The notes below the pieces were generated by a model that was given only the letters and a program-made list of their open reading frames with translations, was not told where the DNA came from and did not search any database. 64,000 nucleotides of DNA, taken from Paracoccaceae bacterium. GTDB lineage: Bacteria; Pseudomonadota; Alphaproteobacteria; Rhodobacterales; Rhodobacteraceae. Below, in pieces: positions 24,059 through 36,454 of this stretch (positions are counted from its first letter, which is position 1; every line of letters starts with the position of its first letter). The DNA is taken from NCBI GenBank assembly GCA_029244725.1, contig JAQWQJ010000077.1, positions 1-64,000 on the forward strand, given 5' to 3'. Both the position numbers and the translations under genes were made by a program.

Positions 24059-24172
24059 TCCAACCATATTTACTGATTATTAACTGATCGGCTGCCCTAA
24101 GTCGCACAGATCGTCTCTGGCGCCTGCTATACGAGTGCTTTAAAGTCGCGTGGATGATCCGGAGGTTGATTG

Positions 24173-24940
24173 ATGGGTGAGTATATTGCGGGGCTAGTGT
24201 TGGCGCTGGCTGACAGTTTCAAGGGAACTGGTGTTCCTGGGTGGGTCGTTTTGGTCCAGATGATTGTGCTGTTCGCAAGTCTGATTGCTGTGTATCTTTC
24301 GCATCGAAAAAAGCTGACCTACATTAACACTTTGATTTACATGGTCCAAAGCGTGAGGGGTCCTCTGACCACCGCAAAACTGGCCGAGCTTAACCCGTTT
24401 CTGTTACGTCCAACTGACGACACACGGACGATGCAACAAAAACGGGCTTGGGCCAATTTTTGTGACGGACTGGAAGAGGTTGATGGCAAGGATGAAGCGC
24501 TAAGTGCGCTAGTTTCACCGTCAGATTGTCTCAACCGTGATTCCATGAGTATCGGGCACGGCATCTGGCGTCAGGTTCCTGGGTTATTTGTAAGCACCGG
24601 CTTGGTACTGACCTTTCTTGGCCTAATCGCGGCCTTGCGTGAAAGCGGGCAGACTATCCTTTTGGCAGGGCAAGACCCTCAGCTTTTACAGTTGTCACTG
24701 TCTGACCTTCTACGGATCGCTTCCGCGAAGTTTATCATGTCTTTGGCCGGTTTGACCGGATCAATCATCCTTGGGTTTTACATGCATATTCTGGACGCGA
24801 AATCGAATGCGACATTGTCCAGACTAAGCAGCATTGTGGATGGCAAAGTGAAACTCTCGTCGCCCGAGCGTACCCTGGCAAATATCCTTAAGGCCATTCG
24901 TGGCGGCGACCGTGAACCGGCCGATTTTTTGAGAAAATAA
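24173..24940 (+). CDS. MotA/TolQ/ExbB-type proton channel protein (ZorA-like, short form)
   Basis: A 255-residue inner-membrane protein. TM1 lies about 22-44, followed by a cytoplasmic segment of about 90 residues. TM2 lies about 137-155 (PGLFVSTGLVLTFLGLIAAL) and TM3 about 185-207 (AKFIMSLAGLTGSIILGFYM). The last two helices show the glycine-rich packing of ExbB/TolQ/MotA channels and most resemble ZorA. The long cytoplasmic tail of ZorA is absent. GGAGG lies 7 bases before the ATG at 24173. The stop shares a base with the next ATG (TAATG), so both proteins should be made together, presumably as a 5:2 ion-driven complex. Function is unknown. Confidence 0.75.
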   Translation: MGEYIAGLVLALADSFKGTGVPGWVVLVQMIVLFASLIAVYLSHRKKLTYINTLIYMVQSVRGPLTTAKLAELNPFLLRPTDDTRTMQQKRAWANFCDGLEEVDGKDEALSALVSPSDCLNRDSMSIGHGIWRQVPGLFVSTGLVLTFLGLIAALRESGQTILLAGQDPQLLQLSLSDLLRIASAKFIMSLAGLTGSIILGFYMHILDAKSNATLSRLSSIVDGKVKLSSPERTLANILKAIRGGDREPADFLRK

Positions 24941-27216
24941 TGTTCCGTCGCAAGCGTCATCAGCAAGAAGAAGAGAGCGAAAGCATTTTCGTTTCGATGA
25001 CCGATTTGACGGTCTCGATCCTTATGATTGTGATCATTCTTCTGGGGTTCTTTGCGTCCCAAATGCGCGATGTTAAAACGCTTGAAGAACTGGAAACTTT
25101 AAAGGCCGTCTTGCAGGAGCGGGACATTGAAATAGCTTCCTTGAAGGACATGTTGTCTCAAGAAGAAGAAGCAACGCGGCGCAAGTTTGAAGATTTGCAT
25201 GCCACTGCCATTGCCGAAATCGAAGTTCTTCAACAGTCCCAGACTGATCTGTCGGGTGATTTGGCAGAGTCACAGGATGCAAAACTGGCGCTTGAACGCG
25301 CTCAGAAGGTGTTGAAATCTGAGTACGACATCCTAGAAAAAACCTATGAGACCTCGGTCGCCGAAGCTGTTGCGCTGCGACACGAGCTTCAGGAATTGTC
25401 AGCCGAAATGGGTGAGGCTGGCACCCTATTGTCCGGTCTTCAGGAAGAACTCTCCAAGCGCCTCGCCGAACTGGCTGAAAGCACCGCAAAAGTGGCCTTG
25501 CTTGAGGATGAGTTAAGCACAGAGCAATCTGCCCGCGAGCTGGTAGAGGGCAAGCTGGCCGAGGCACAATCACAGATTGGCAGCCTGAAGTCAGACGTTA
25601 GCGACTTGACGCTGGGCGTTGAAGCGCTGGATGCAAGGCGTATTGAACTGCTGGGCATTCGCGATGTGATTGAAGCCGAGAAACAACAGCTCGGCAATGA
25701 ATTGTCCGCCAGCAAAGGCGAAACCCGCCGGGCAAATGCGACGGTACGAGAACGGGATCAAGTTATTACGGATCTTCAATCAGACATTATTGGTCTGAAT
25801 GCTGACATAGACGTACTGAAAAGTCAGGCGGCGTCGTTGTTGCAAGATTTGGAGACGGAACAGCACGCAAAAGCCAACGCCCAAGCGGCCCACGAACAAG
25901 CAATGTCTGAAATTGCCGAGCTGCGCGACGAAATATCAAAGGTTGAATTTCAAAAGGCCGTGGTCGCAGCTGAACGTGATGCGCTATCGAACGCCAGGGC
26001 TAAGCTGATGGAAGAACGCAGCGACTTTCTCGCTTTGATTGAAGATTTGGGCGAAAAGTTGGAAGAGGTCGATTTCAACCGCCAAAATCTGATTGTCGCT
26101 CATGGGGAACAGATTGCTGCGCTTGAACAACGGATCAACGAAATAACGCAGGACCATCAGAAAGAGCTGAAAAAGCAGGCTGAGCTCGAGCAAGCTCTGA
26201 CCGATCGTGACGCATTAATTGCGACGCGCGACGAGCGGCTAGAGGTGTTGTCGTCTGAACTTGAGGACAGCCAGAAAAACTTGATGAGTGCAAATTCGCA
26301 GGTTTCAGCACTTGAGAAATTGCAGGGCACTACATCCGGAGAAGTGGCCAACGTCGAGCGCGCGATGGAAGTGTTGCGCTTCGATTTAAAGCAATCCTTT
26401 GAGCAGTCAAAGACTTTGAAAGCCGAAATAGAGACCTTGCAGGCTGATCTAGAAACAGCTGCTGTTGCCTATTCTACCCTTGAGGCCAAGGCGAGTGCCA
26501 ATGACGCTACCGCAGAGCAAGTTCAACAAGAACTTGCTGAAAAGGACGCCGAAATAGCCTCGCTTCTCGAAGAACGCGCGGGTTTGGCTAGAGAGTTGAA
26601 CACGGTTACGGCGACGGCGGAACGATTGCTCGAAGATTTGAAATTAAGCGACGGTATTCGGGCTGAATTGGCCTCTGAGGTGGCAATCTTGCGCGAGGCT
26701 GCAGAAGTTGCGGCCGAACAAAACGCTGATTTGTCGGGCAATTTAGGCGCGGAAATCGCCAAACGCACTGAGGCCGAAGCGGTTTTGGCCTCAACAAACG
26801 CGGATCTTACCCAAGTCAAATCTGCGCTCGACGAAAGCCTTGGGACATTGGCCGATCTCCGTGAGGCGATGGACGTTTTGCAGATTGCAGCGAACGAAGC
26901 TGCGTCTTCTCTTGCAGAACGTGACGAAGAGCTTCGCATGATAACAACCGAGTTGGAATCCGCTCGCGAAATCGCAGCTACAAAAACAAGCCAGTTAGAG
27001 CTTGGTAAATCACAGTTTGAAGAACTGCAGTCCGGCTTTCAAAAGCAGCGCATTATCTTAATGTTGCGGCAGTCGAAGTTCGAGAGAGCCGCCAATGAGA
27101 ATGAGAACTTGAAGGCAAATGTGGCTGAGCTTACCGCACAAATTGATACCCAAAAATTGGAACTGGAAGCCGCTTTGGCAGAGCTTGAGGCGCTTTTAAC
27201 AAAAGAAGACCAATAG
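24940..27216 (+). CDS. MotB/ZorB-like single-helix anchor with very long coiled coil
   Basis: A 758-residue protein. A short basic N-terminus (RRKRH) is followed by one membrane helix, about 18-42 (FVSMTDLTVSILMIVIILLG). Its Asp22 sits where MotB, ExbD and ZorB carry the ion-binding Asp. From residue 45 to the end it is an uninterrupted heptad-type coiled coil rich in Glu, Ala, Leu and Lys. No Pro, Cys or Trp is seen anywhere. There is no OmpA/peptidoglycan-binding domain at the C-terminus. By the positive-inside rule the coiled coil faces the periplasm. It is translationally coupled to the channel gene. It has not been described to my knowledge; motor-stator function is inferred. Confidence 0.7.
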   Translation: MFRRKRHQQEEESESIFVSMTDLTVSILMIVIILLGFFASQMRDVKTLEELETLKAVLQERDIEIASLKDMLSQEEEATRRKFEDLHATAIAEIEVLQQSQTDLSGDLAESQDAKLALERAQKVLKSEYDILEKTYETSVAEAVALRHELQELSAEMGEAGTLLSGLQEELSKRLAELAESTAKVALLEDELSTEQSARELVEGKLAEAQSQIGSLKSDVSDLTLGVEALDARRIELLGIRDVIEAEKQQLGNELSASKGETRRANATVRERDQVITDLQSDIIGLNADIDVLKSQAASLLQDLETEQHAKANAQAAHEQAMSEIAELRDEISKVEFQKAVVAAERDALSNARAKLMEERSDFLALIEDLGEKLEEVDFNRQNLIVAHGEQIAALEQRINEITQDHQKELKKQAELEQALTDRDALIATRDERLEVLSSELEDSQKNLMSANSQVSALEKLQGTTSGEVANVERAMEVLRFDLKQSFEQSKTLKAEIETLQADLETAAVAYSTLEAKASANDATAEQVQQELAEKDAEIASLLEERAGLARELNTVTATAERLLEDLKLSDGIRAELASEVAILREAAEVAAEQNADLSGNLGAEIAKRTEAEAVLASTNADLTQVKSALDESLGTLADLREAMDVLQIAANEAASSLAERDEELRMITTELESAREIAATKTSQLELGKSQFEELQSGFQKQRIILMLRQSKFERAANENENLKANVAELTAQIDTQKLELEAALAELEALLTKEDQ

Positions 27217-27294: not shown

Positions 27295-28443
27295 ATGCCT
27301 ATGCCCAATCTTATCCTGACGAATGCCCAGCTTGTTCTGCCAAGTGAAACCCTTTTGGGAACCATTGAGGTTAGGGATGGGGTCATAGTCTCGATCACTT
27401 CGGGTACGACTCACGCGCGCGATGCGATAGACTGTGAGCGTGACTATATCATTCCCGGTTTGATCGAACTTCATACAGACAATCTTGAACGCCATTTGCA
27501 GCCACGCCCCAAAGTGAACTGGCCACACACTGCCGCCATTTTGGCGCATGATGCTGAGCTTGCCAGCGTGGGGATCACAACGGTTTTCGATGCCGTGCGC
27601 CTCGGTTCTTTGGTCGGAGACGCGAAGGTTGCCTACGATCGTTATGCCCGTTCCTTAGTGACGGAACTCTTGGATATTCGCGATCGCGGCGTGTTGAAAT
27701 GCAGCCACTTTCTGCATCTACGCGCCGAGCTCTGTTCTGAATCCCTTTTGAATGAACTTGAAGAATTTGGCCCTGAGGATCGCGTTGGGATTCTGTCGGT
27801 CATGGACCACACACCGGGCCAAAGGCAGTTTAGAGATCGCGAGAAATTCAAAGGCTATCTTCAGGGAAAGTTTGGATTGACGGAGGAACAGTTTGAAAGC
27901 CATGTCTCATATCGAACCGAGCTCAGTGCGCGAATGGGCAAAACCCATGAAGCTGCTGCCGTTGCGGCGGCTCATAGGTTTGGCGCGGTCCTTGCCAGCC
28001 ACGACGACACGACCACTGGTCAGGTAGAGCGATCTGCCGAGCACGGTATCAAATTGGCTGAATTCCCCACAACAATTGAGGCGGCGAAGGCTTGCCGCGC
28101 CCATGGTCTTTCAATTGTAATGGGGGCCCCTAATCTTATCAGGGGCGCGTCCCATAGCGGCAACGTAGCGGCGGTAGAACTTGCAGATTTGGATTTGCTG
28201 GACATCTTGTCGTCAGACTACGTCCCGTCGGCGTTGCTGACGTCAGCCTTTATGTTGGGTGACTTGTGGGGGAATATTCCAAAAGGTATTGCCACCGTGT
28301 CTTCAAACCCTGCTGCAGCAACAGGATTGTCCGATCGTGGACGCTTGGACATTGGAAAACGTGCCGATTTTTTGCGGGTGCAGCTTGTCAAAAACACACC
28401 GGTGCAACGTGGTGTCTGGTGCGGCGGTAGGCAAATTAGCTGA
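27295..28443 (+). CDS. phnM: PhnM-type alpha-D-ribose 1-methylphosphonate 5-triphosphate diphosphatase
   Basis: A 382-residue amidohydrolase with the metal-binding HTDNLERH motif after YIIPGLIEL, the VMDHTPGQRQF segment and the late SSDYVPSALL region of PhnM. In the carbon-phosphorus lyase pathway PhnM releases pyrophosphate from ribose methylphosphonate triphosphate. No other phn gene is within the window, so it may act with a distant cluster or have another triphosphate substrate. The start is either ATG 27295 or ATG 27301. It lies between the coiled-coil gene and tRNA-Arg(TCT). Confidence 0.88.
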   Translation: MPMPNLILTNAQLVLPSETLLGTIEVRDGVIVSITSGTTHARDAIDCERDYIIPGLIELHTDNLERHLQPRPKVNWPHTAAILAHDAELASVGITTVFDAVRLGSLVGDAKVAYDRYARSLVTELLDIRDRGVLKCSHFLHLRAELCSESLLNELEEFGPEDRVGILSVMDHTPGQRQFRDREKFKGYLQGKFGLTEEQFESHVSYRTELSARMGKTHEAAAVAAAHRFGAVLASHDDTTTGQVERSAEHGIKLAEFPTTIEAAKACRAHGLSIVMGAPNLIRGASHSGNVAAVELADLDLLDILSSDYVPSALLTSAFMLGDLWGNIPKGIATVSSNPAAATGLSDRGRLDIGKRADFLRVQLVKNTPVQRGVWCGGRQIS

Positions 28444-33196: not shown

Positions 33197-33832
33197 TTAG
33201 CCGGAAAGTTTTGCCATCAGCTCATCAAATAACGCTTCAATTTCGAGTGCAGCTTTTTTGGCGCGCGGCATTTCGCGCACGCCTTTCCCAAGACCGAGCG
33301 CCTCGGCGTAGGAGATGCGATTTGCCAAATGGGTTTGTGCTAGATGGGCATCAAGTTCGGTCGCCGCACCAGCAATTTCCGCACCTAAGCGAGTGTTAGA
33401 CTTTAACCGATTCAAAACTATGACCGCAGCACGGGCTTCGCGGCGAGCTAAGTCTAGAACGCCCTCGGTGGCCCAAAGATCGACGTGCGATGCAGCGACA
33501 GGGACCACAACCAAATCAGCGATGCGCAGGGCGGGGCGTAAATCACTATCTGCCTTGGGGGGCGTATCGACTATCACAAGGTCGTAGCTCTCGGACAGTT
33601 TTCCGACTTCGTATGCGACACCCCAAGCCGACGCTGTGGACAACTCAAGCTCAGGTGACTGTCCATTTTCGAGGCGCGTCATGAACCAGCGCCCAAGGCT
33701 GCCCTGAGGATCCGTATCAACGACAGCGACCTTTAGACCTCGGTGTACGGCTTCAACGGCAATGTTAATTGCGAGAGTGGTTTTCCCGCTGCCGCCTTTT
33801 TGCTGCGCAATTGTGATGACGTGGCCGGTCAT
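33197..33832 (-). CDS. Orphan ParA/MinD-type ATPase
   Basis: A 211-residue P-loop ATPase with the deviant Walker A KGGSGKTT (signature Lys at the second position), the Walker A' DTDPQGS and Walker B VIVDTPP. The short length and lack of an HTH N-terminus fit chromosomal orphan ParA proteins that position cargo on the nucleoid. No parB, parS or chemotaxis genes are next to it, so the cargo is unknown. Confidence 0.87.
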   Translation of the reverse strand: MTGHVITIAQQKGGSGKTTLAINIAVEAVHRGLKVAVVDTDPQGSLGRWFMTRLENGQSPELELSTASAWGVAYEVGKLSESYDLVIVDTPPKADSDLRPALRIADLVVVPVAASHVDLWATEGVLDLARREARAAVIVLNRLKSNTRLGAEIAGAATELDAHLAQTHLANRISYAEALGLGKGVREMPRAKKAALEIEALFDELMAKLSG

Positions 33833-33913
33833 GTTTGCCTCATGGTTTTGCTGCAGCGCAGCATAAGCGCGCAGTCGGCAGGCACAAGGGGCAGAATGCT
33901 AGATAGCGTTAAA

Positions 33914-33939
33914 AAAGCCCGCCGATGGTGGCGGGCTTT
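33914..33939 (-). terminator. Rho-independent terminator after the beta-helix protein gene
   Basis: AAAGCCCGCC and GGCGGGCTTT form a perfect 10-base stem around a six-base loop. On the minus strand the stem is followed by a run of six T, ideal for termination of the gene ending at 33947. It also works partly in the opposite direction. Confidence 0.85.
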
Positions 33940-33946
33940 CGTCGTG

Positions 33947-36238
33947 TTATAAAGGGTTGTCCATGCGGACGGTTACCGAAACTTTGCCGCGTGTAGCCTC
34001 GGACCAAGTTAGGTTGATGTCGCCCTTGTCCGACCCTTGTTTGGTTGATGCATAGGGTAGCGAGAAATTCACGCCGCCAGACCCGTTCGAAATCGGGCCA
34101 TCGGGCATCATGGCAGTCACTCGACGCGCGTACCCATTGAAAGGCAGTTGACCGGCGGTTTCGACAGTCCACGTGGTAGCGGCAGAGAGCTGATCGTGAT
34201 GGATGATCAACGGGTTAAATACATCGTTGTCGATAGTGTTGAACGTGTTGCCCTGAAAAACAACATTTCTCATCCGGTCAAAGTTCAAATCCGAGAACGA
34301 CGTGTCGATCGCCTCGACCCTATCAATACTGCCATTCAACGTGCGGAACACGTTGCCAGTGACGTTCAAGCCGTGGATAAAATGGTCCGCACCGTGCGGT
34401 TTGATGACGATAAAGTTGAACCAGGGAGCAACGTCGTTGCAGGTGAATATATTGTCACCAATGGTCAGACCCCCGAACGAGAATTCGTTGGATTGTTCAG
34501 GGTATGGGTCGTGTTCGTTGGACCATTCTACAAAATTGTTGTCGATGTAATTGCCGTCGATCGTGGATTTGCAGTTGGTTTGAGTGATGACCAGCCCCGC
34601 ATCACGAATTCCTGCGGCTTCGTTGTCGCCGTGAAACCAATGATTGCCGCTAATCAAATTGCCCGAGCCGGCAAGGATCGCGAAATGACGGGTATGAACG
34701 CAGCGATTATCGCGAATTTTTACATCATTGCCCGCTGCATTTAGCGCAATACTAACCCTGTCCTGAACCTTCACGGGGCTTTCATCGGAAAGAAACTGAC
34801 AGCGGTCGACCATTAGACCCTGACAACCCTCGCCGGGTGAACTGATACCGCGATCTTTTGGGCGGGTTAGATAGCAATCTTTGACGGCGAAGGCGATGCC
34901 CGCAGGGGCCAATAGGATGCCACTCGCGCGGCCAGAACACTGGAACTCAATTCCTTCAACTACGAACTTTGAAATGCTATCGAAGCCGCTGAAATCCAAA
35001 AGGTATTTGTGTCGTGTGAAGGTGAAGTTTTGCGAGCCTTCGGCGTCATAAAGCGGCAACGACAGCGTAAGAGTTCCCGCGCCAACGTTAACTTCGCGCA
35101 CATAGACCTCACGCCCTACACCGGTGCCCGTTACTATTGCGCCCACAGGTATGTTGGCCACATTGGCGACGGCCGTTAACTGGTATGGGTTTGAAGCAGT
35201 ATATGCGGCCAACGATGTGACGTCTTCGCTTTCCCAAGTGCTGCTATCTTTGGTATAAAACTGCCCGTTACGGATAACACGACGCGTAGCATATGAGGTC
35301 CGGTTAGGAACAGCCGCTTGCAGGTTCAACGGCTCTGACAGCTCAATTCGTCGCCCGCCTAGATCAAGGCTTTCGTGGCCAGAACTGTTGAGCAGCGCTT
35401 GAAACGCCTTTTTAAAGGCCTGTGCCTCGTCGCCAAAGGCGTCGATATAATTGGGCAGATCGTAGTTTTTGGTGAGCGATAGAATGGCGTCATCGGGCAT
35501 CAAAACCGTCTCATGAAATACCGCTCGGTTGGTCAGGGAAACGTTTTGTTCGAGGTAAAAGACGCCCGTCGGGATCAGTACGTCACGACCATTGGCGGCG
35601 TCATCCGCTGCCAGAAAGGCGGCCGTGTCGTCGTTAATCCCGTCACCTACTGCGCCATAATCACGAACGTCTACCCATCCCATCATATCGCGATGAAAAT
35701 AATGGGTAACGTCCTCAATTTCTATATCGTCAATGCGGACGATACCGCCGTTCACACCAGTCAAATCAAGGCCGAAATGCCCATAAAGTGCCTCTGGTCC
35801 CCATGCCATGTCTACGCCTGTTCGAGTGCCAGTGCCGACGATTGCTGAAACCTCCACAACCTTGCCATAGCTATCAAGTGCAACCGCGCTGGCCGTTTCA
35901 GTTAGACCAGATACGTGAAAATTGCCTGCGCCGCCCGCCCAACCAGCAACGCGAATAGATGGAAAATTGCCACTGATGGCCTTTATGCGAACCTTAATTT
36001 GCAGATAGCAGCCCGGCAGCAGCGGTGTTTCACCCATATAGCGAAGCTTTTGGACACTTTCTGTCTTCTGCAGCTCGAGACTGGTTCCAAAATCCTGATC
36101 AGCAGGCACAAAGGCTGCATTGCTGGCACCGTCGTATGTATCTGATCCTGGCGTACCATCTCCGCTGGACCACATGGTCAGCCCGCCTGAAAAATCAGGG
36201 GGGGTAAAATGGATACCGTCTGTAATTGCTTTGTTCAT
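33947..36238 (-). CDS. Right-handed beta-helix (pectate lyase superfamily/tail-spike-like) protein
   Basis: About 763 residues. An N-terminal galactose-binding-like beta domain (about 1-185) is followed by the GH28-related/pectate-lyase superfamily start VRDYGAVGDGINDDTAAFLA (about 190-210). Repeated parallel beta-helix turns rich in N, G and D follow (NDVKIRDNRC, GNLISGNHWF, STIDGNYIDN), then a beta C-terminal domain. No signal peptide is seen. This architecture is shared by phage tail spikes and by proteins that bind or cleave surface polysaccharide. The ATG at 36238 is chosen because AAAGG lies just upstream; the longer frame starts at TTG. It is a single gene with its own terminator. Confidence 0.78.
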   Translation of the reverse strand: MNKAITDGIHFTPPDFSGGLTMWSSGDGTPGSDTYDGASNAAFVPADQDFGTSLELQKTESVQKLRYMGETPLLPGCYLQIKVRIKAISGNFPSIRVAGWAGGAGNFHVSGLTETASAVALDSYGKVVEVSAIVGTGTRTGVDMAWGPEALYGHFGLDLTGVNGGIVRIDDIEIEDVTHYFHRDMMGWVDVRDYGAVGDGINDDTAAFLAADDAANGRDVLIPTGVFYLEQNVSLTNRAVFHETVLMPDDAILSLTKNYDLPNYIDAFGDEAQAFKKAFQALLNSSGHESLDLGGRRIELSEPLNLQAAVPNRTSYATRRVIRNGQFYTKDSSTWESEDVTSLAAYTASNPYQLTAVANVANIPVGAIVTGTGVGREVYVREVNVGAGTLTLSLPLYDAEGSQNFTFTRHKYLLDFSGFDSISKFVVEGIEFQCSGRASGILLAPAGIAFAVKDCYLTRPKDRGISSPGEGCQGLMVDRCQFLSDESPVKVQDRVSIALNAAGNDVKIRDNRCVHTRHFAILAGSGNLISGNHWFHGDNEAAGIRDAGLVITQTNCKSTIDGNYIDNNFVEWSNEHDPYPEQSNEFSFGGLTIGDNIFTCNDVAPWFNFIVIKPHGADHFIHGLNVTGNVFRTLNGSIDRVEAIDTSFSDLNFDRMRNVVFQGNTFNTIDNDVFNPLIIHHDQLSAATTWTVETAGQLPFNGYARRVTAMMPDGPISNGSGGVNFSLPYASTKQGSDKGDINLTWSEATRGKVSVTVRMDNPL

Positions 36239-36454
36239 TTCTACGCCTTTCTCATGGCCCAAATGCCGCCTGTGTTGCCCGAAAGATGTCGGGCTAAAAG
36301 TTAATGGGTTGCTTTCACACCGTTCGATGGGCTCAGAGATTGGTTTTGCAAAAACATATTCAAGAAACTGCGGTTTATTGCCCGAATTTTGCGTCAGTGG
36401 TTGACCGTCACCGCTGCAATCTCCACATAGCTTTAGAAACTAAAAGGATCGTCC

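What the first reader, a model, noticed from the sequence alone, without database searches (positions are those of the whole stretch)
24173..27216. Two-gene stator-like complex whose anchor carries a coiled coil of about 700 residues instead of a peptidoglycan-binding domain
The first gene encodes a three-helix MotA/ExbB/ZorA-type channel. The second encodes a single helix with Asp22 in the ion-binding position of MotB/ExbD/ZorB, then an unbroken coiled coil to the C-terminus without Pro, Cys or Trp. The genes share a base (TAATG), so they are made together. In Zorya the long tail belongs to ZorA and faces the cytoplasm, and ZorB has the peptidoglycan-binding domain. Here the channel has no tail and the anchor is elongated. 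By charge distribution the coil would be periplasmic, yet a straight helix of that length would be near 100 nm, much longer than the periplasm. It must fold back, bundle, or be inserted differently. No nuclease or helicase partners of Zorya are nearby. This could be an undescribed ion-driven machine.
Basis: partly seen in the sequence, partly recalled or inferred. Interest (0 to 1): 0.8.

Follow-up and report, generated by a model that had tools for sequence, protein, structure and literature searches.

The report
Tailless Zorya-type motor, polysaccharide-linked
Two overlapping genes appear to encode an ion-driven membrane motor derived from a phage-defence motor that has lost its inner tail, its cell-wall anchor and its defence partners, carries a very long helical rod instead, and travels through evolution with genes for a secreted polysaccharide.

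Summary
ORF1 (24173-24940) is a ZorA motor unit without the cytoplasmic tail: PADLOC ZorA1 E 5.7e-43 over the head only; predicted fold best matches solved ZorA. ORF2 (24940-27216) has the ZorB N-terminus with Asp22, then 716 mostly helical residues and no recognised peptidoglycan-binding domain. It is not a lone oddity: six Rhodobacterales genomes (five with both genes intact) carry this architecture; their channels form one clade (100/99), nested among long-tailed ZorA. A ZorC model finds nothing in these six genomes and rings in two Zorya controls.

In three genomes the intact pair stands divergently beside a Wzy/Wzc-type exopolysaccharide cassette; a fourth keeps a remnant of both. In the window's genome and its sister species the same cassette lies on another contig. 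All six have the cassette's 226-aa gene; in order genomes the cassette's Wzy is found in 17 of 390. Wzc and Wzy of the five intact pair genomes each form one 100/100 clade that mirrors the pair.

Best reading: an ion-driven motor, exapted from Zorya, that works a long periplasmic rod in exopolysaccharide assembly or export. Homology and linkage are shown; topology and function are untested.

The parts
24161..24165 (+). GGAGG, likely ribosome-binding sequence, 7 bases before the ATG of ORF1
   Evidence: read from the sequence
24173..24940 (+). ORF1, 255 aa: ZorA-type channel subunit without the cytoplasmic tail
   Evidence: PADLOC ZorA1 PDLC00600 E 5.7e-43, protein 1-243 on profile 7-244 of 677; NCBIfam ZorA 70.5 bits, below its cut-off of 190; AF2 pLDDT 84; best solved match ZorA 8qyd, Z 16.1, 237 aligned, rmsd 4.6
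24611..24613 (+). Thr147 of ORF1, candidate for the Ser/Thr ion-binding ring
   Evidence: invariant in 21 aligned heads; role inferred from the Ser/Thr ring described in PMC11890865
24722..24724 (+). Ser184 of ORF1, candidate for the Ser/Thr ion-binding ring
   Evidence: invariant in 21 aligned heads; role inferred from the Ser/Thr ring described in PMC11890865
24940..27216 (+). ORF2, 758 aa: ZorB-type membrane helix followed by a long helical tail, no recognised peptidoglycan-binding domain; overlaps ORF1 by one base (TAATG)
   Evidence: PADLOC ZorB1 PDLC00612 E 4.5e-14, best stretch 4-132 of the protein; no OmpA-family hit in Pfam or NCBIfam
24985..25065 (+). residues 16-42 of ORF2: transmembrane helix
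   Evidence: highest hydrophobic window starts at residue 16, mean 2.45; 22 invariant columns in the first 41 residues over 5 members
25003..25005 (+). Asp22 of ORF2, the ion-carrying aspartate position of ZorB/MotB
   Evidence: invariant in 5 of 5 members in the motif SMTD; ZorB D24 is needed for defence in Zorya (PMC11890865)
25066..27213 (+). residues 43-758 of ORF2: helical tail, most likely a coiled coil
   Evidence: composition and periodicity; AF2 helices at low confidence

Best explanation
The pair is an ion-driven inner-membrane motor of the 5:2 kind. Five ORF1 subunits would form the channel ring around a dimer of ORF2 helices; ions would pass between Asp22 of ORF2 and the Thr147/Ser184 ring of ORF1 and turn the ring relative to the dimer. 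[quoted passage not shown] The only long lever left is the ORF2 tail, a helical rod of 234-716 residues which by homology points into the periplasm. So the motor's output is most likely on the periplasmic side, as a force transducer or moving rod that helps to assemble, move or export the exopolysaccharide made by the Wzy/Wzc-type cassette with which it shares neighbourhood and ancestry. Shown here: the homology, the conserved residues, the missing domains and partners, the conserved architecture, the linkage and the matching trees. Inferred: stoichiometry, ion flow, rotation, topology, the polysaccharide role, and how the rod acts.
For: Channel: ZorA profile and fold, including two short strands (100-102, 110-112) in keeping with a Zorya-specific beta-sheet of the cytoplasmic domain (PMC12505986, passages). 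Ser/Thr and Asp positions invariant. Architecture: of 44 genome contigs relatives, 5 are of the short kind (L059-L063, the last a remnant) and 39 have ORF1 of 473-873 aa. One clade, 100/99, on heads only 100/100, nested among long ZorA with weakly matching ExbB-like rows outside (97/93, next fork 95/73). ZorC model: 0 of 6 pair genomes, 2 of 2 controls. Polysaccharide: pair beside the cassette in L060, L061, L062, remnant in L063; 226-aa gene in 6 of 6 pair genomes, Wzc orthologue in 5 of 6; in 390 order genomes the cassette's Wzy is in 17 at E below 1e-39, both pair genomes of that sample among them. Wzc and Wzy of the five intact pair genomes are one clade, 100/100 each, split as the pair is. 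Precedent: the Agl motor moves Exo polysaccharide on Myxococcus spores (PMC3858216, outline and one section); TolA rods exceed the periplasm's width (PMC12204202, passages).
Against: In the window's genome and its sister species the pair is not beside the cassette. The six genomes make only two lineages, so 6 of 6 is far from six independent events. Matching trees would also follow from plain vertical descent of two unrelated loci. Other genomes have this cassette kind without the pair: 14 inspected in the order sample, and 16 of the 17 genomes with a close Wzc in a sample of 198; so the pair is not required for such cassettes in general. A 106 nm rod does not fit upright in a periplasm, and tail length varies threefold. 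Without a wall anchor it is unclear what the ring pushes against.
Confidence: 0.45

Rival explanations
1. A stripped, stand-alone anti-phage motor: the tail senses envelope damage during infection and opens the channel, and the ion leak itself is the effect, without nuclease partners. Surface polysaccharide genes lie nearby because both concern phage contact.
For: Closest relatives are Zorya ZorA/ZorB; patchy distribution as for defence genes (8 of 198 and 14 of 390 genomes have any ZorA-type match); remnant locus in L063.
Against: In Zorya both the ZorA tail and the ZorB wall-binding domain are needed for defence (PMC11890865), and both are absent here. The ZorC model finds nothing in 6 of 6 genomes, and ZorC and ZorD proteins find no match in the loci. 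Tied to one polysaccharide clade.
Confidence: 0.2
2. A motor with an envelope role of its own (for instance tension sensing or membrane linkage); the polysaccharide neighbourhood is incidental, carried along in one genomic region of Rhodobacterales.
For: Not adjacent in 2 of 5 intact cases; different neighbours in the window (glutamine amidotransferase, a PhnM-like protein, uvrB, by eye) and in its sister species. Cassettes of this kind mostly lack the pair.
Against: All six genomes carry the cassette's 226-aa gene although the cassette's Wzy occurs in only 17 of 390 order genomes; the cassette genes of the pair genomes are one clade; adjacency holds in LSUCC0031, Marivita and Yoonia (ORF1 76-82% identical), while the far flank differs between L060 and L062.
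Confidence: 0.25
3. The tail is cytoplasmic: ORF2 is inserted the other way round and the rod replaces the lost ZorA tail on the same side.
For: Would explain why the rod moved from one subunit to the other, and would remove the length problem.
Against: N-terminus MFRRKRH is strongly basic and the Asp sits at the matching place of the membrane helix as in ZorB; the tail carries net -73; the only tail with Cys (L059) has exactly two, 14 positions apart near its end (648, 662), as a periplasmic disulphide could.
Confidence: 0.07
4. A decaying Zorya: frame or domain losses on the way to a pseudogene.
For: Zorya genes do decay: L104 carries a frameshifted ZorA, G424 a truncated one, and L063 a remnant of this very kind.
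Against: Five intact pairs with one-base or near overlap and 22 invariant columns in the first 41 residues of ORF2, across members whose channels are only 36-41% identical between the two lineages.
Confidence: 0.03

Closest known systems
Zorya type I ZorAB (with ZorC, ZorD)
   Same: Channel profile and fold, invariant Thr/Ser and Asp positions, gene order A-B with a short overlap in most loci
   Different: No ZorA tail, no ZorB peptidoglycan-binding domain, no ZorC or ZorD found; very long ORF2 tail; linked to polysaccharide genes
TolQR-TolA and ExbBD-TonB
   Same: Channel fold at lower score (Z about 11); a long helical periplasmic rod longer than the periplasm has a precedent in TolA (PMC12204202, passages)
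   Different: TolA is a separate protein with a globular end domain, and an SHLS motif marks such membrane helices (PMC12204202); here the rod is the Asp-bearing subunit itself, without that motif or a predicted end domain; 234-716 residues against 110-335 reported for TolA domain II
Myxococcus AglRQS with Nfs and Exo
   Same: A motor of this class that moves a secreted polysaccharide (PMC3858216, outline and one section)
   Different: AglRS of Bdellovibrio is grouped with TolQR, apart from ZorAB (PMC12505986, passage); Agl works with a multi-protein envelope complex; Nfs-like genes were not searched for here
SiiAB of the Salmonella giant-adhesin secretion system
   Same: Stator-like pair attached to a secretion system (named so in PMC12204202, passage)
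   Different: Protein secretion; no rod of this kind known to me (recalled)

Membership tests
Zorya type I defence system | ZorA motor unit | tested here: met
   PADLOC ZorA1 E 5.7e-43; fold Z 16.1 to 8qyd. NCBIfam ZorA models stay below their curated cut-offs.
Zorya type I defence system | long cytoplasmic ZorA tail | tested here: not met
   ORF1 ends at residue 255, profile match stops at 244 of 677; the four other intact members are 260-275 aa
Zorya type I defence system | ZorB with Asp in the membrane helix | tested here: met
   ZorB1 E 4.5e-14, best stretch 4-132; Asp22 invariant
Zorya type I defence system | ZorB peptidoglycan-binding (OmpA-like) domain | tested here: not met
   no such hit in Pfam or NCBIfam, and the PADLOC ZorB match covers the N-terminus only; the C-terminal motif found in 35 of 39 other loci is missing in 5 of 5 intact members
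Zorya type I defence system | ZorC and ZorD partners | tested here: not met
   ZorC1 model PDLC00619: 0 of 6 pair genomes, 2 of 2 controls; ZorC and ZorD of L082 find nothing in the window or the pair loci. ZorD was not searched genome-wide.
Zorya type I defence system | protection against phage | not testable with these tools
   needs a bench test
5:2 ion-driven motors (MotAB/ExbBD/TolQR/ZorAB) | channel subunit of the family fold | tested here: met
   ZorA, TolQ and ExbB chains are the best solved matches; Pfam MotA_ExbB itself gives no hit
5:2 ion-driven motors (MotAB/ExbBD/TolQR/ZorAB) | Ser/Thr ring and Asp for ions | tested here: met
   Thr147 and Ser184 invariant in 21 rows, Asp22 in 5 rows; ion flow itself not tested
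5:2 ion-driven motors (MotAB/ExbBD/TolQR/ZorAB) | five-to-two assembly | not testable with these tools
   only single chains could be predicted
TolA/TonB force transducers | SHLS motif in the membrane helix and a globular C-terminal domain | tested here: not met
   no SHLS in 5 of 5 intact ORF2; the window's tail is predicted helical to its end, at low confidence
Wzx/Wzy-type polysaccharide machinery | genetic association with the cassette | tested here: inconclusive
   adjacent in 3 intact genomes and one remnant, on another contig in 2; 6 of 6 genomes carry the 226-aa gene; matching trees; but only two lineages

The most novel reading that the evidence does not exclude
A defence motor has been turned into a dedicated power unit for polysaccharide secretion: an ion-driven ring turns or pulls a 35-106 nm helical rod inside the cell envelope, with no wall anchor, to assemble, extrude or spread the exopolysaccharide. 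That would be a ZorAB-derived motor outside immunity, with the rod built on the ion-binding subunit.
Probability: 0.35. Interest if true: 0.9.

Novelty: new variant of a known kind. Interest (0 to 1): 0.72.

Why it matters
If right, it shows that the Zorya motor core can be separated from immunity and reused, and gives a natural test of which parts of a 5:2 motor are needed to do work: here both the cytoplasmic rod and the wall anchor are gone. It also raises a testable question in polysaccharide export, whether ion flow through a motor helps a Wzy/Wzc-type pathway in bacteria other than Myxococcus. For annotators it is a warning: defence-finding models match these two genes as ZorA and ZorB although features that Zorya needs are absent.

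Tried and rejected
First genome-contig scan with the single protein found nothing; the scan with an alignment did. G869 looked short but is a frameshifted long ZorA; G424 is a truncated ZorA; G124's frame stands at the end of its contig. A polysaccharide cassette beside the pair in the window was looked for by eye and not found; it is on another contig. ORF1 had no match in the phage records and matches in two Zymomonas plasmid records, at 32-33%; their neighbourhoods were not read. The ORF2 alignment finds no solved structure. Internal repeats as the source of tail length: clear in L060 (score 257, shuffle maximum 99; two copies of a 97-base DNA repeat) and likely in L061 (107 against 72); the window (164 against 157), L059 (122 against 111) and L062 (74 against 72) are within what the test can tell, since the 30 shuffles were scored at fewer cut points than the real tails. 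Weak class-level matches (E about 1e-4, frames of 244 aa and more) were not examined one by one. Literature searches for such a pair or for a motor beside Wzc gave nothing fitting in their listings; the held library is open-licence PubMed Central only and the Nature paper on Zorya was not held, so this is not proof of absence.

Weaknesses of my own counts: the 226-aa family was scored with a profile built from the six pair genomes, so its 21 of 390 includes three matches that look false by open-frame length (G222, G268, G306) and may miss distant members; the Wzy count is the cleaner one, but its threshold (1e-39) was chosen after seeing the list (23 of 390 at 1e-10). The chance that both pair genomes of the order sample have the cassette is 0.0018 from 17 of 390, ignoring kinship. 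In one search only genes starting between 4000 and 16500 of each stretch were printed. The OmpA-type C-terminal end was judged by a short motif, not by a profile in every locus.
Full report
What is there. The window holds two overlapping genes, ORF1 at 24173-24940 (255 aa) and ORF2 at 24940-27216 (758 aa), sharing one base as TAATG. ORF1 matches PADLOC's ZorA1 models over the head only (E 5.7e-43, residues 1-243, profile positions 7-244 of 677), and ORF2 matches ZorB1 at its N-terminus (E 4.5e-14, best stretch 4-132). Pfam gives neither MotA_ExbB for ORF1 nor an OmpA-type domain for ORF2. NCBIfam's ZorA models hit ORF1 below their curated cut-offs (70.5 bits against 190), so the name ZorA would not be given by that standard. 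ORF2's matches to SMC, Rad50 and the like are what long coils commonly give.

Structure. AlphaFold2 on 21 aligned heads gives ORF1 a mean pLDDT of 84 with long helices at 21-60, 135-165 and 169-225 and two short strands at 100-102 and 110-112. The best solved matches are ZorA chains (8qyd Z 16.1, 237 residues, rmsd 4.6; 8vvn Z 15.2), then TolQ and ExbB at about Z 11 (Foldseek agrees). A profile search of solved sequences finds five entries, all from ZorAB structures. A paper on stator evolution says that Zorya-type proteins have extra beta-sheet in the cytoplasmic domain (PMC12505986, passages), in keeping with the two strands. ORF2 alone is predicted as five long helices with weak confidence (68.8).

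The tail. After residue 42, ORF2 has 716 residues without Pro, Cys or Trp, 22 Gly, net charge -73, and a clear 3.5-residue period (0.67; 100 shuffles reach 0.32 at most). The five intact members (window, L059, L060, L061, L062) have tails of 716, 635, 403, 427 and 234 residues, 106 to 35 nm as straight helices. The period is above shuffles in the window, L059 and L061; in L060 it equals the highest shuffle and in L062 it is below it; these two tails are 24% Ala. In alignment, 22 of the first 41 positions are invariant and only 2 beyond. So the membrane end is held and the rod drifts in sequence and length; L060 carries an internal duplication. The topology (tail in the periplasm) is inferred from homology and charge, and from L059, whose ORF2 has just two Cys, at 648 and 662 of 677.

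Relatives. Of 198 family genomes 8 have any ORF1 match, of 390 order genomes 14, of 385 class genomes 55, mostly weak. A scan of genome contigs, which depends on two exact peptide patterns, gave 44 loci: 5 of the short kind (L059 the sister species; L060 Rhodobacterales LSUCC0031; L061 uncultured Marivita; L062 Yoonia vestfoldensis SKA53; L063 a Yoonia MAG with a remnant) and 39 with ORF1 of 473-873 aa. Of those 39, 35 are followed by a ZorB with the OmpA-type C-terminal motif, 3 have no second gene in the stretch and 1 has a second gene without it, shortened to 184 aa; 5 of 5 intact short members lack the motif. Eight further loci from the genome searches were read; all eight have a ZorA of 481 aa or more with a ZorB that carries the motif. 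In L082 the genes after ZorA were named ZorB, ZorC and ZorD by PADLOC; its ZorA is named by its match to the query.

Descent. The six short channels form one clade (100/99; heads only, 100/100). With weakly matching ExbB-like rows outside (my label), the five intact ones fall inside the long ZorA rows (forks 97/93 and 95/73; some long branches, midpoint root). The simplest reading is loss of the tail from a Zorya-type ancestor. The ZorC1 model finds nothing in 6 of 6 pair genomes and rings in 2 of 2 control genomes with Zorya. ZorC and ZorD proteins from L082 find nothing in the window or in the pair loci, while its ZorB finds ORF2's N-terminus in all of them but the remnant.

The polysaccharide link. 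In L060, L061 and L062 the pair is divergent from a gene for a protein of about 226 aa (no Pfam family), followed by an O-antigen-ligase-type protein (Wzy_C), a metallophosphatase and a Wzz/GNVR/AAA_31 protein (Wzc-like); L062 continues with LysM and NTP-transferase proteins (Pfam was run on L062, the others by similarity). Further out lie genes that I read by eye as UDP-sugar enzymes, glycosyltransferases and a flippase-like protein (not profiled). A winged-helix gene of about 100 aa follows the pair in L062 and, by eye, in L060. In L063 a 2060-base stretch survives, 91% identical to L062, with part of Wzy, the 226-aa gene and part of ORF1; ORF2 is not found in the stretch, and the Wzc orthologue is not found in the genome. 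In the window's genome the same four genes are on contig C61 and in the sister species on C14, away from the pair.

Controls. The 226-aa gene is in 6 of 6 pair genomes. In 390 order genomes its profile hits 21. Of these, 2 are pair genomes; I read the neighbourhood of 15 others, of which 14 are cassettes at least in part and one (G383) is not, and none of these 15 has an ORF1 match; the remaining 4 weak matches were not read. The window genome's Wzy hits 23 of 390 at E 1e-10 and 17 below 1e-39, both pair genomes of the sample among them. In 198 family genomes, one for each genus, 17 have a close Wzc (E 1e-90 or better), and of these only the window's genome has an ORF1 match. Trees of Wzc (20 rows) and Wzy (17 rows) both put the five intact pair genomes in one clade at 100/100, split into window plus sister against the other three, as the channel tree is; adding the three closest Wzc to 16 rows does not break it. 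Thus within the sampled cassettes the pair goes with one clade, and that clade with the pair. Common vertical descent could produce the match of trees, and there are only two lineages, so I treat the link as strong but not proven.

How it would work. In Zorya the wall-binding domain of ZorB, the ZorA tail and ZorB's Asp are all required for defence (PMC11890865, abstract and section 6). Here the first two are gone and the Asp and the Ser/Thr ring remain, so ion-driven movement is plausible while Zorya's way of defence is not. The only lever is the ORF2 tail. TolA sets a precedent for a helical rod longer than the periplasm (PMC12204202, passages), and the Agl motor for a motor of this class that moves a secreted polysaccharide (PMC3858216, outline and one section). 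I therefore favour a periplasmic force transducer for exopolysaccharide assembly or export, at 0.45, over an incidental neighbourhood (0.25) and a stripped defence system (0.2).

Verdict. It is a conserved, rare variant of the 5:2 motors in Rhodobacterales, nested in the Zorya branch but failing Zorya's defining features, with a polysaccharide link that makes its function testable.

Noticed in passing
L066:5047-14668: Among the loci with the OmpA-type end, one has a second gene of 828 aa beside a ZorA of 873 aa, so long tails arise in ZorB with that end too.
   Followed up: no
L062:9851-9982 and L028:2511-2653: The divergent region between the pair and the 226-aa gene holds a short inverted repeat around TGTCGC/GCGACA, seen by eye; possibly a site for the winged-helix protein coded beyond the pair in L062.
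   Followed up: no
L063:8564-10622: A remnant of the locus with broken ends on both sides: part of Wzy, the 226-aa gene and part of ORF1 survive together.
   Followed up: partly
L103:8001-8681: A viral-collection contig carries a long ZorA (682 aa) followed by a ZorB with the OmpA-type end.
   Followed up: no
window 33197-36262: A ParA-like protein stands beside a 771-aa protein that reads like a beta-helix, tail-spike or pectate-lyase type (judged by eye).
   Followed up: no
window 27295-28443: A PhnM-like amidohydrolase directly follows the pair on the same strand, 78 bases on (judged by eye).
   Followed up: no
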